Assembly: GCA_002840405.1 (NCBI GenBank)
Contig: PHAR01000001.1
Coordinates: forward strand, 76,384-140,383
Length of the DNA stretch: 64,000 bases
Reading direction: 5' to 3'
Origin: Deltaproteobacteria bacterium HGW-Deltaproteobacteria-8
Lineage (GTDB): Bacteria > Desulfobacterota > Desulfovibrionia > Desulfovibrionales > Desulfovibrionaceae
In this document: positions 2,325 to 5,660 of the stretch, piece after piece
Layout: every line of letters starts with the position of its first letter
Position numbering within the stretch: position 1 is the first letter of the stretch
Notes under the pieces: generated by a model
Databases searched by the model: none
What the model saw: the letters and a program-made list of their open reading frames with translations, nothing else
What the model was told of the DNA's origin: nothing
Made by a program: the position numbers and the translations under genes

Positions 2325-3410
2325 TTACACGAGCTTCATGCGGGCCGTGCCCTTGGCGTAGAAGGGCAGGGCGGCGCGCCTGGCCTCCAGGTCGCCACGC
2401 TGGGTGCGCACGCTAAACTGCTCCTGCTCGGCCACATCGGCCCGCACGTAGGCCAGGGCCACGCAATGCCCCAGCGAGGGCGCAAAGGAGCCGCTGGTGA
2501 CCACGCCGACCTCCTCGCCGCCGGGCAGGACAACGAGATCATAGTGCCGCGCGCTGCGGCGGCCGGGCAGCTCCAGGGCGATGAGCCGCTGGCGCACATT
2601 GGCCAGGGCGTCCTGTCCGGTGAAGGGCGTCTTCTTGCCGAGCAGCGGCCCGAACCCGGCCTCGGCCGGGGTGTGCTCGGTGTCGAGATCCTGCCCGTAG
2701 AGCGGGTAGCCCATCTCCAGGCGCAGGGTGTCACGCGCGCCCAGGCCCACGGGCTTCACCAGCGGGTGCGCGATGAGCGCCTCCCACATGGGCAGGGCCA
2801 GGGAAGAGTCGAGGTACAGCTCGTAACCCAACTCGCCGGTATAGCCTGTGCGGCTCACCAGCAGGGGCTCGCCCTGCCATATGGTGCGCACAAAGTTGAA
2901 GTAGCCCGGCGACTGGAAGTCGCTGCCCAGCACAGCCTTGATGGCCTCCAGGGATTTCGGACCCTGAACGTCGATCTTGCCGGTCTTGGGGGAGATGTTG
3001 GTCAGCTGCGGCCCCTTGGCCAGATGCGCGGACAGCCAGGCGAAGTCCCCCGCCTCGCAGGCCCCGTTGACCACGAGCATGTAGTCGTCCACATCCAGGC
3101 AGTAGATGATGAGGTCGTCCAGCACCCCGCCGGACTCGTTCAGCAGGAAGCCGTAACGGCACTTGCCCGGAGCCAGGGTGTCCAGGTCCTGGGTCACCAG
3201 CGCGCCCAGGGCGGCCTTGGCTCCCGCGCCGCGCAGGGAGAACTCGCCCATGTGGCAGATGTCGAAGATGCCCACGGCCTCGCGGGTGTGGTTGTGTTCA
3301 GCGATGATGCCCTCGTACTGGATGGGCATGTCGTACCCGGCAAAGGCCGCCATCTTGGCGTTCTTGCCGCGGTGCCACCCGGTGAGGGGCGTGGTGTTGA
3401 GGTTCTCCAC
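2325..3410 (-). CDS. gcvT: Aminomethyltransferase (glycine cleavage T protein)
   Basis: A protein of about 361 residues with GcvT features: [23 protein letters not shown] at the N-terminus in place of the usual T-P-L-x-x-x-H, F-D-I-C-H-M-G-E after it, [13 protein letters not shown] in the folate-binding half, and [11 protein letters not shown] further on. GcvT moves the aminomethyl carbon from lipoyl-H protein to tetrahydrofolate and releases ammonia. The GTG at 3410 is preferred over an upstream ATG because AAGGAG lies six bases before it and homology begins there. The other gcv genes are not in the window, so it is apparently monocistronic here. YgfZ-type folate proteins are less likely given the complete substrate motifs. 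Confidence 0.92.
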
Positions 3411-3577
3411 TGTATTCTCCTTGTCGCGGATTTCGTGCGAGGAACTATTCTGCCACATTCTTTCCCGGTGCTCAATCACCACTTTTTATAATATCCCTCT
3501 CCGATTGGTCCTTGTTGACGCTTCCGAGGATTTTCTTTAACAAACCCGGTAAGGCAAATCCGCTGCGGAGGAAGAGA

Positions 3578-3790
3578 ATGCGCAAACTGGACCAGTGCCC
3601 TCGCGTCAAGATCAACGAGAAGTATTGCGTATGCACCTATCCGGGCTGCAGCAGGCGCGGATTGTGCTGCGAGTGCATGCACTACCACCGCCTGCGCAAC
3701 GAATTGCCCGCATGCTACTTCACGGCGGATGAGGAAAAGACCTACAATCGCAGCGTCGAATTCTTCATCCAACGCAGATCCGGGAAGTAG
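3578..3790 (+). CDS. Small cysteine-rich protein (DUF6485-like)
   Basis: A 70-residue protein with cysteine pairs suited to metal binding: C-x8-KYCVC, then [17 protein letters not shown], and a final A-C-Y-F. The pattern resembles the short DUF6485 family, whose function is unknown. The ATG at 3578 follows a GGAGGAAGAG ribosome-binding site. It ends 9 bases before the MreB-like gene, so the two are probably co-transcribed. A zinc or iron-sulfur site is inferred only from the cysteine spacing. Confidence 0.7.
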
Positions 3791-3799
3791 GGCAGAGAC

Positions 3800-4831
3800 A
3801 TGTCACTTCGTCTGCGCAACCCGCTCAACCTTTTGCGCAGCCAAGCCATAGCCCTGGACGCCGGCTCGGGGCGCACTATCATCACCAATCAGCAGTCCGA
3901 GGTGCTCCTTGATGAGCCCTCTGTCATCGCTATAGAGCACGGCACGGGCGCGGTCATCGCCACGGGCGCGGAGGCCAAGAGCTACCTCGGCAAGGCCCCG
4001 GAGCGCATCCAGGTCATCCGGCCCATACAGGCCGGGGTCATTGTGGATTTCGACTCGGCCAAGGCCATGCTGCGCATCTTCTTCAAGCGCGTTTTGCCTG
4101 ATGACGGCTCCAGGTTCAAGGTCTGCGCCGTGGTCTGCCACGGCATCACGGCACTTGAGAAGCGCACCTTCGCCGACTGCTGCAAGGCAGCCGGGGCCGC
4201 AAGGGTCGACCTGGTGGACGCCCCGCTGGCCGCTGCCGTTGGCGCTGGCCTGGACATCCGCCAGGCCAAGGGCCGTCTCCTGCTGGGCATCGGCGCGGGC
4301 TTGGCCGAGGCCTCGGTGCTCTGCCTGTCCGACGTCGTGTACAGCGAAACAGCCCGCATCGGCGCAGAGGTTTTCCACGAGTCCGTGACCCAGCATCTGG
4401 CCGCGCGCTACAAGGTCGCCATTGGCGAGAACATGGCCGAGCAGACCACCATCCAATTGGCCTGGGCTGAGCGCCCGGCCGAGACCCGCCGCATGACCCT
4501 CACCGGGAAGTACTCCGGCAGCGGCACGCCCTGCGCCCTGGAGCTGACGGACGACGATCTGGAAGGCGCCTTGGACGGGCCCCTGGACATGCTGGAGGCC
4601 CTGGTGCGCAAGGCCATGGACAAAACCCCGGCCGAACTCGTGGCCGACATCGCGGACACCGGTCTCGTGCTGTATGGTGGCGGAGCCCAGATCCACGGCC
4701 TGGACATCGCCCTGGGAGCCCGGCTTGGGCTGCGCACTCGCGTGGCCCAGGAGCCCTCGAAGGTAGCGGTGCTTGGCGCGGCCGCCACCCTGCGCCCGGA
4801 CCTGGACTTCAAGAAGCTCTTGGTCAAATGA
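3800..4831 (+). CDS. MreB-like actin-family protein with degenerate ATPase site
   Basis: A 343-residue protein with the MreB/Mbl layout: an N-terminal strand ALDAGSGRTII (phosphate-1 loop), the LLDEPSVIAI block, P-I-x-A-G-V-I-V-D-F, and LVLYGGGAQIHGLD near the C-terminus (adenosine loop). MreB polymers organise lateral wall synthesis. Two key positions differ from canonical MreB. The catalytic Glu of the E-E-P-M-A-A-A-I-G motif is Ala (D140-A141-P142), and the phosphate-2 loop D-I-G-G-G-T reads G-I-G-A-G-L (163-168), losing its Asp. It is therefore probably a non-hydrolysing paralogue, with a canonical MreB expected elsewhere. It starts with ATG after GGGCAGAGAC. Confidence 0.8.
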   Translation: MSLRLRNPLNLLRSQAIALDAGSGRTIITNQQSEVLLDEPSVIAIEHGTGAVIATGAEAKSYLGKAPERIQVIRPIQAGVIVDFDSAKAMLRIFFKRVLPDDGSRFKVCAVVCHGITALEKRTFADCCKAAGAARVDLVDAPLAAAVGAGLDIRQAKGRLLLGIGAGLAEASVLCLSDVVYSETARIGAEVFHESVTQHLAARYKVAIGENMAEQTTIQLAWAERPAETRRMTLTGKYSGSGTPCALELTDDDLEGALDGPLDMLEALVRKAMDKTPAELVADIADTGLVLYGGGAQIHGLDIALGARLGLRTRVAQEPSKVAVLGAAATLRPDLDFKKLLVK

Positions 4832-4832
4832 C

Positions 4833-5660
4833 GTGACCCATCCCTTCACCCCCGATCACCTTGCCTCCCTTCTTGAGCGCACGGCCAGCGCCGTGCTTGA
4901 GGCAGGCCAGATCATCCGCGAGCATGACCGCCTGCCCCGGCGCATCCGCCACAAGGCCAGCCCAAAGGACCTCGTCACCGAAACGGACGTTTCCGTGGAG
5001 AATTTTCTTCGCGAAAGCCTGGGGCCGCTGGTTCCAGGGGCCGGGTTCCTGGGCGAGGAGGGCAGCGCCGGGCTGGGCCTGCAGGGCTTGGCCTGGGTGG
5101 TGGACCCTGTGGACGGCACCACCAATTTCGCCCACGGCGTGCCCTTTGTGGCCACCTCGGTGGCCCTGTGCCTGGACGGCGTCCCGCTTTTGGGCGTGGT
5201 GAACCTGCCGCTCCTGGGCGAGCTGTTCACCGCTGGGCTGGGCCTTGGCACCCGGATGAACGGCGAAGCCGTCAGCGTATCGGACACCGCGACCTTGCTG
5301 GAGGCTCTGGTGGCCACGGGCTTCCCCTACCGCATCGAGGAGCACCAGGCCGCGATCCTGCGCCAGCTGGCCCTGGCCATGCCCGCCACCCAGGGCGTGC
5401 GCCGAGCCGGGGCAGCCGCCCTGGACTTGGCCTTTGTGGCCTGCGGCCGCTACGACGGCTTCTTCGAGTTCGCGTTGAATCCCTGGGACACGGCGGCCGG
5501 GGTGCTGCTGGTCCAGGAGGCCGGGGGACACGTGGGGCGCATGACCGAAAACACTCCGTACCGCCTGGACTCTCCGGATATCCTCGTGTGCAACGCTAGG
5601 CTTGAGCCTGCCCTGCGGGCCTTGCTCAAACAGGCTTGCGTTCCCGTTTCGGAAGATTGA
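4833..5660 (+). CDS. suhB: Inositol monophosphatase-family protein
   Basis: A 275-residue protein carrying both Li-sensitive phosphatase signatures: W-V-V-D-P-V-D-G-T-T-N-F near residue 90 (metal-binding D-P-x-D-G-T) and N-P-W-D-T-A-A-G near residue 217. A GEEG-type glutamate block (FLGEEG) precedes the first. The family dephosphorylates inositol-1-phosphate and related sugar phosphates; bacterial SuhB also acts in rRNA transcription antitermination, so substrate and role are open. The GTG at 4833 lies one base past the MreB-like stop and is chosen because the ATG further upstream would lie inside that gene. Its 3' end overlaps the convergent Nudix gene by 35 bases. Confidence 0.85.
   Translation: MTHPFTPDHLASLLERTASAVLEAGQIIREHDRLPRRIRHKASPKDLVTETDVSVENFLRESLGPLVPGAGFLGEEGSAGLGLQGLAWVVDPVDGTTNFAHGVPFVATSVALCLDGVPLLGVVNLPLLGELFTAGLGLGTRMNGEAVSVSDTATLLEALVATGFPYRIEEHQAAILRQLALAMPATQGVRRAGAAALDLAFVACGRYDGFFEFALNPWDTAAGVLLVQEAGGHVGRMTENTPYRLDSPDILVCNARLEPALRALLKQACVPVSED

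What the first reader, a model, noticed from the sequence alone, without database searches (positions are those of the whole stretch)
3800..4831. MreB-like protein lacking the catalytic Glu and phosphate-2 Asp
The E-E-P-M-A-A-A-I-G catalytic motif reads D-A-P-L-A-A-A-V-G and the D-I-G-G-G-T loop reads G-I-G-A-G-L. The fold motifs at both ends are kept. This suggests a pseudo-ATPase actin homologue, paired with a Cys-rich small protein.
Basis: partly seen in the sequence, partly recalled or inferred. Interest (0 to 1): 0.5.

Follow-up and report, generated by a model that had tools for sequence, protein, structure and literature searches.

The report
MreB copy without ATP-splitting residues
One genus of sulfate-reducing bacteria keeps, beside its normal cell-shape protein MreB, a second MreB whose ATP-splitting residues have been replaced in every species where the gene was found, which makes it a probable bacterial actin that works without burning ATP.

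Summary
Window 3800-4831 (+) encodes a 343-residue MreB-fold protein without the catalytic Glu (A141), the magnesium-holding Asp (G163) and the catalytic Thr (L168). The genome has an ordinary mreB elsewhere, followed by mreC.

It is the orthologue of a second, intact MreB ("MreB2") of its relatives: same gene place, same clade. The three residues are kept in 94 of 94 MreB2 rows and lost in 13 of 13 rows from this genus, probably Humidesulfovibrio.

MreB2 normally follows a tandem-GAF-domain gene (76 of 83 loci). A wider clade around this genus lacks that gene; in it mreB2 stayed intact (two genera), lost its active site (this genus) or disappeared (two genera).

The window gene is under purifying selection (dN/dS 0.18 among close species, like its neighbours), although across the genus it changes faster than most of them. 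Its altered phosphate-2 segment is its most invariant part.

Best reading: a pseudo-ATPase MreB2 acting as a hydrolysis-independent filament subunit or regulator; the filament role is inferred. The Cys-rich neighbour is not a specific partner. Closest precedent: Spiroplasma MreB3.

The parts
3800..4831 (+). pseudo-ATPase MreB2 (343 aa), MreB/actin fold
   Evidence: best AlphaFold2 model aligns to T. maritima and C. crescentus MreB crystals at Z 38.1-39.9, model residues 12-343
3800..3841 (+). N-terminal peptide MSLRLRNPLNLLRS, 8 of 14 residues invariant in 11 species; possible membrane or protein anchor (inferred)
   Evidence: helical moment like that of other MreB N-termini but less hydrophobic; low model confidence
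3857..3859 (+). Asp20, phosphate-1 Asp, kept
4100..4114 (+). place of the hydrophobic membrane loop, here DDGSR, polar and one residue shorter than in canonical MreB
   Evidence: 13 of 13 rows; compare F102/V103 of C. crescentus MreB (PMC4051119)
4148..4192 (+). helix of the inter-protofilament contact, changed V>L, A>T, V>F/I
4217..4243 (+). connect-1 motif DAPLAAAVG; codon 4220-4222 = Ala in place of catalytic Glu
4286..4309 (+). phosphate-2 loop GIGAGLAE in place of DIGGGTTE; the surrounding segment (residues 156-172) has 12 of 17 residues invariant in 11 species
3578..3790 (+). DUF6485 Cys-rich small protein, upstream neighbour (start inferred from an SD-like stretch)
2325..3482 (-). gcvT-like gene (name recalled, not from a family search), conserved flank
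4833..5660 (+). inositol monophosphatase family gene, starting just after the mreB2 stop (start inferred); conserved flank

Best explanation
It is the orthologue of MreB2, a second MreB of the Desulfovibrionales that is normally encoded directly behind a tandem-GAF-domain protein. In the ancestor of this genus and its closest relatives the GAF gene was lost. In this genus MreB2 then lost its ATP-hydrolysing residues along one long branch and was kept by selection in the new form. It most likely works as an MreB-fold subunit whose assembly no longer cycles with ATP hydrolysis: either a static filament of its own, or a passive subunit or regulator of the canonical MreB filament, held to membrane or partner through its conserved N-terminal peptide rather than the lost hydrophobic loop. 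Shown here: loss of the residues, orthology, purifying selection, absence of the GAF gene, predicted fold. Inferred: the order of events, no ATP hydrolysis, the filament or regulator role, the anchoring.
For: Residues lost in 13 of 13 and kept in 94 of 94 MreB2 and 53 of 53 canonical rows, but for one canonical row with Glu at the Asp. Same gene place. Tree: the 13 rows form one clade (SH-aLRT 100) inside MreB2 on a stem of 3.04 changes per column; with other long rows left out they join the GAF-less MreB2 rows (99; stem about 2.9, the two halves's root branch added). A tree of canonical MreB puts this genus and the GAF-less genera g5, g25, g32, g40 and g44 in one clade (98). GAF protein found in 148 of 199 family genomes, 0 of 15 of this genus. 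dN/dS 0.18 in six close species, ten neighbouring genes 0.06-0.26. Former cleft, as I defined it: 24 of 44 residues invariant against 99 of 343 overall, p 1e-4. The sites of S283 (A282) and V118 (L119) of C. crescentus carry no charge. Precedent: Spiroplasma MreB3 lacks the motif, releases phosphate very slowly and still polymerises; Spiroplasma MreB5 E134A still forms filaments (passages).
Against: No biochemistry. D20, E170, glycine turns and the adenosine loop remain, so nucleotide binding or very slow hydrolysis is possible. The inter-protofilament helix and hydrophobic loop are altered, so it may not form canonical double filaments. Related genera lack the gene, so it is dispensable in this group. 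Over all loci of the genus its dN (0.30) is higher than that of most neighbours (gcvT 0.19, phosphatase 0.21, tpiA 0.21; LPLAT 0.30 and NUDIX 0.38 are similar or higher). Only the best of five structure models is good (mean pLDDT 84.4; the others 44.7-59.9).
Confidence: 0.5

Rival explanations
1. It has left the cytoskeleton: the MreB fold is kept as a folded regulator or adaptor that neither polymerises nor uses nucleotide.
For: Long stem, altered inter-protofilament helix and lost hydrophobic loop, loss of the universal Asn (canonical 24) and Lys (canonical 220, here Thr217).
Against: 40 of 77 positions universal in canonical MreB and MreB2 are kept, K60 and D283 among them; these probably match K57 and D276 of the Spiroplasma MreB5 longitudinal contact (the mapping is inferred).
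Confidence: 0.25
2. A relic on its way to loss, kept only by time.
For: No GAF gene in the genus, the gene cleanly absent in related genera g5 and g32, fast stem, and a faster rate across the genus than most neighbours.
Against: Open frame in all 13 genomes that hold it (two are cut by a contig end, L043 and L046), dN/dS among close species like that of neighbours, invariant new phosphate-2 segment.
Confidence: 0.12
3. Still a nucleotide-binding switch: it binds ATP or ADP without catalytic turnover, so that nucleotide level and not hydrolysis sets its state.
For: Phosphate-1 Asp20, glycine turns, E170, E210, E214 and the adenosine-loop glycines kept; former cleft unusually conserved.
Against: Mg Asp, catalytic Glu, Thr and the conserved Lys (here Thr217) lost.
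Confidence: 0.12
4. Sequencing or assembly artefact or pseudogene.
For: None found.
Against: Thirteen assemblies carry it at the same locus.
Confidence: 0.01

Closest known systems
MreB2, second MreB of Desulfovibrionales (Desulfovibrio genomes with two mreB genes, D. gigas with three: PMC4287179, passages seen)
   Same: Same locus, orthologous by tree, same fold
   Different: 94 of 94 MreB2 rows keep the catalytic residues, and 76 of 83 loci have a tandem-GAF gene directly upstream. That the paper's second genes are this MreB2 is inferred
Canonical MreB (C. crescentus, T. maritima)
   Same: Actin fold over nearly the whole length, phosphate-1 Asp, adenosine glycine loop
   Different: Lacks catalytic Glu, Mg Asp, Thr and hydrophobic loop; not in an mreBC operon; 36% identical to this genome's own canonical MreB
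Spiroplasma MreB3 (PMC9597168 and PMC13310574, passages seen)
   Same: A natural MreB that lost the E...T-x-[D/E] motif, in a cell that keeps active MreBs
   Different: Spiroplasma has E>D, T>K, E>S/T in a wall-less cell; here E>A/T, T>L/V plus Mg Asp>Gly, last Glu kept, in a walled group; independent origin is inferred, not tested in a common tree

Membership tests
MreB/Mbl family (fold level) | Pfam PF06723 above gathering score | tested here: met
   269.2 bits, cut-off 27
MreB/Mbl family (fold level) | actin fold over full length | tested here: met
   best AlphaFold2 model, Z 38.1-39.9 to T. maritima and C. crescentus MreB crystals
Canonical MreB ATPase | NCBIfam MreB subfamily cut-offs | tested here: not met
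   273.1 against 293 and 241.2 against 365.75; the canonical copy and one MreB2 pass both
Canonical MreB ATPase | catalytic motif E...T-x-[D/E] and Mg Asp | tested here: not met
   A141, G163, L168; only E170 kept
Canonical MreB ATPase | ATP hydrolysis and antiparallel double filaments | not testable with these tools
   needs purified protein
Canonical MreB ATPase | gene beside mreC and mreD | tested here: not met
   the canonical copy has mreC and a next ORF that Pfam does not recognise; this one sits between DUF6485 and an inositol monophosphatase gene
Desulfovibrionales MreB2 | orthologous place and tree position | tested here: met
Desulfovibrionales MreB2 | tandem-GAF gene directly upstream | tested here: not met
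   76 of 83 MreB2 loci have it, none of 12 fetched loci of this form nor the window; not found in 15 of 15 genomes of the genus
Spiroplasma MreB3 | MreB without the catalytic motif | tested here: met

Spiroplasma MreB3 | common descent with MreB3 | not tested
   the orthology to MreB2 by place makes it unlikely

The most novel reading that the evidence does not exclude
MreB2 of Desulfovibrionales is a signal-gated actin controlled by its tandem-GAF partner (one genome even encodes both in one open frame). In this genus, after loss of the sensor, MreB2 was remade into a constitutive, nucleotide-independent cytoskeletal element: a pseudo-actin of the MreB family fixed across a whole genus of walled bacteria.
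Probability: 0.25. Interest if true: 0.65.

Novelty: new variant of a known kind. Interest (0 to 1): 0.45.

Why it matters
What ATP hydrolysis does for MreB in the cell is unsettled (PMC13310574, passage: the biological roles of MreB ATPase activities remain controversial). A natural series at one locus, from GAF-linked and intact through GAF-less and intact to catalytically dead or gone, gives a test of that question and of what a second MreB does. It also points to a GAF-MreB2 gene pair in sulfate reducers that I did not find described: three full-text searches (7 of 7, 8 of 8 and 12 of 38 papers listed) show no paper that treats such a pair by its title and the start of its abstract.

Tried and rejected
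Rejected: DUF6485 as specific partner (present at six of six loci without mreB2). Rejected: the protein as the cell's only MreB (canonical copy found). Rejected: plain pseudogene.

The first tree (93 of 160 rows) placed the window form beside other MreB2 rows, not beside the GAF-less ones. Because the program warned of long branches meeting, I rebuilt it without the long rows L154, L205-L208 and L215 and with many other rows dropped to shorten it (51 of 160 rows); it then joined the GAF-less genera, in line with the canonical-MreB tree (which has 25 open forks of 50). All three are quick searches without bootstrap.

Other MreB2 rows have lost the FIRST Glu of EEP (7 of 94, among them the three GAF-less g25 rows); that residue is Asp in C. 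crescentus, so it was not counted as catalytic.

The two genomes of the genus without the gene (G007, G010; 86 and 81% complete) gave only a distant match (29% identity) to the neighbouring phosphatase, so absence is read as missing sequence. G062, perhaps nearest to the genus (72% complete), gave no phosphatase and cannot be used. Three of the 11 genomes (G020, G068, G071) gave none either and were not followed.

The cleft definition was mine (residues 19-27, 140-148, 162-171, 208-217, 291-296). Literature: searches found no paper on a pseudo-ATPase MreB (0, 1 and 0 papers held all the terms; the one, PMC4207490, was seen in the listing only). One search looked for the morphology of Humidesulfovibrio: two papers in the listing, none opened.

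Full report
What is there. Window 3800-4831 (+) is a clean 343-residue ORF. Pfam gives MreB_Mbl, 269 bits. NCBIfam's MreB models match but below their cut-offs, while the genome's canonical MreB and one relative's MreB2 pass them. The best of five AlphaFold2 models (mean pLDDT 84.4, pTM 0.81; the other four 44.7-59.9; 10 sequences in the alignment) aligns with T. maritima and C. crescentus MreB crystal structures at Z 38.1-39.9 and 32-36% identity.

The active site. Taking the C. crescentus alignment, the catalytic Glu140 is Ala141, Thr167 is Leu168, and Glu169 is kept as Glu170; the Mg-coordinating Asp (Asp156 of Spiroplasma MreB5) is Gly163. The roles of these residues come from passages of three papers (PMC9597168; PMC9195046; PMC4051119). 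In 160 distinct MreB rows from the genome and its relatives (53 canonical, 94 MreB2, 13 of the window form; one row per genome in each group), the Glu and the Thr are kept in 147 of 147 canonical and MreB2 rows and the Asp in 146 of 147 (one Glu); all three are lost in 13 of 13 of the window form. Of 77 positions at least 97% uniform in canonical plus MreB2 rows, 40 are kept, 18 lost and 19 mixed in the window form. The lost ones include Asn24, Glu144, Asp166, Gly169, Thr171 and Lys220 of the canonical numbering (nucleotide site; that Asn24 and Lys220 belong to it is recalled) and three in the inter-protofilament helix. The hydrophobic membrane loop is replaced by a polar, shorter loop in 13 of 13.

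Where it comes from. The genome carries an ordinary mreB followed by mreC (Pfam) and an ORF in the place of mreD that Pfam does not recognise. Of 40 genomes, counting the window's own, 15 are of its genus: 13 have the window form (one of these, G011, 73% complete, shows no canonical copy) and two (G007, G010) only the canonical one. Of the 25 from other genera, 23 have canonical MreB plus a second, intact MreB (MreB2); G018 and G020 show none. MreB2 lies at the place of the window form: in 23 of 23 MreB2 loci at least one of the flanking genes gcvT, DUF6485, inositol monophosphatase, NUDIX, rimI and tpiA is beside it, though several loci outside the family keep only part of the set (some gene names recalled from sequence). 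Titles of matching public contigs say Humidesulfovibrio in 3 of 12 loci (others say Desulfovibrio, Desulfocurvus or less); I take that as the genus.

The partner. MreB2 directly follows a gene for a protein with two GAF domains (Pfam) in 76 of 83 MreB2 loci from 83 genomes of 45 genera (75 plus one, L053, in which GAF and MreB2 lie in one 688-codon open frame; an internal ATG after a possible ribosome site leaves separate starts possible). The GAF protein is found in 148 of 199 family genomes and in none of the 15 of this genus. The seven exceptions are one genome with the gene on another contig (L170, G085) and six loci of genera g25 and g40. In a tree of canonical MreB, this genus and the rows from g5, g25, g32, g40 and g44 form one clade (support 98), and by my reading no genome of these genera is among the 148. 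In that clade g25 and g40 keep the three catalytic residues of MreB2 (six rows; the g25 rows have lost the first Glu of EEP), g5 and g32 have lost GAF and mreB2 with the flanking genes in place (five loci), and this genus holds the window form. With other long-branched rows left out, the window form and the MreB2 of g25 and g40 are one clade (99). Outside that clade G053 (g35) lacks both as well, and some genomes (G068 of g50, G071 of g53) have the GAF gene without a second MreB, so the link is strong but not strict.

Is it alive? In six close species dN/dS is 0.18 (15 pairs, NG86, dS 0.63), against 0.06 to 0.26 for ten neighbouring genes, for example 0.18 for the phosphatase and 0.19 for tpiA. 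Over all loci of the genus its dN, 0.30, is higher than that of most neighbours, and it changes far faster than the canonical MreB of the same genus (97% identity or more in the five loci, against 59-86% for the window form). Across 11 species 99 of 343 positions are invariant; in my definition of the former nucleotide cleft 24 of 44 are (p 1.1e-4), and in the phosphate-2 segment 12 of 17. A dying gene would hardly hold its altered active-site loop this tightly.

How it may work. Losing the Glu and the Thr should stop positioning of the attacking water, and losing the Asp removes a magnesium contact, so hydrolysis is very unlikely (inferred from PMC9597168 and PMC9195046). Spiroplasma MreB3, which lacks the motif, has phosphate release below detection by a conventional method yet polymerises, and a catalytic-Glu mutant of Spiroplasma MreB5 still forms filaments with altered dynamics. 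The position whose mutation to Asp makes C. crescentus MreB monomeric (S283) is Ala282, as in canonical MreB here, and the inter-protofilament Val118 is Leu119. I therefore favour a filament subunit or regulator free of the ATP cycle, attached through the conserved N-terminal peptide, but a non-filament role cannot be excluded.

Novelty. Loss of the motif in an MreB is known: it is conserved in 95.8% of non-Spiroplasma MreBs, so absent in about 4% (PMC9597168), and MreB3 is characterised. What I did not find described is the genus-wide fixation in a walled group, the loss of the Mg Asp as well, and the stepwise history with the GAF partner; my searches for that were made, which cover open-licence papers only.

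Noticed in passing
L053:3974-6037 (-), genome G015: Tandem-GAF protein and MreB2 lie in one 688-codon open frame without a stop; possible fusion, though an internal ATG with an SD-like stretch is present at the joint.
   Followed up: partly
L047:6424-8229 (+) and homologues upstream of MreB2: A roughly 600-residue protein without a Pfam match lies near DUF6485 and MreB2 in many relatives and was not found in any of 15 genomes of the window's genus.
   Followed up: partly
L154, L202-L205, L208, L215: Seven other MreB2 proteins have lost the first Glu of the EEP motif (to Ala, Ile or Val); L205 and L215 are on long end branches and L202-L204 on a long stem, perhaps other MreB2s drifting from the canonical mechanism.
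   Followed up: partly
genera g50 and g53 (for example G068, G071): The tandem-GAF gene is present but no second MreB is found, so the GAF protein has some role without MreB2.
   Followed up: no
L241:2-256: A contig of a MAG labelled Elusimicrobia begins with an 84%-identical fragment of the window gene (residues 42-126); none of the neighbouring genes was found in the 4,256 bases held. Probably a chimeric contig.
   Followed up: partly
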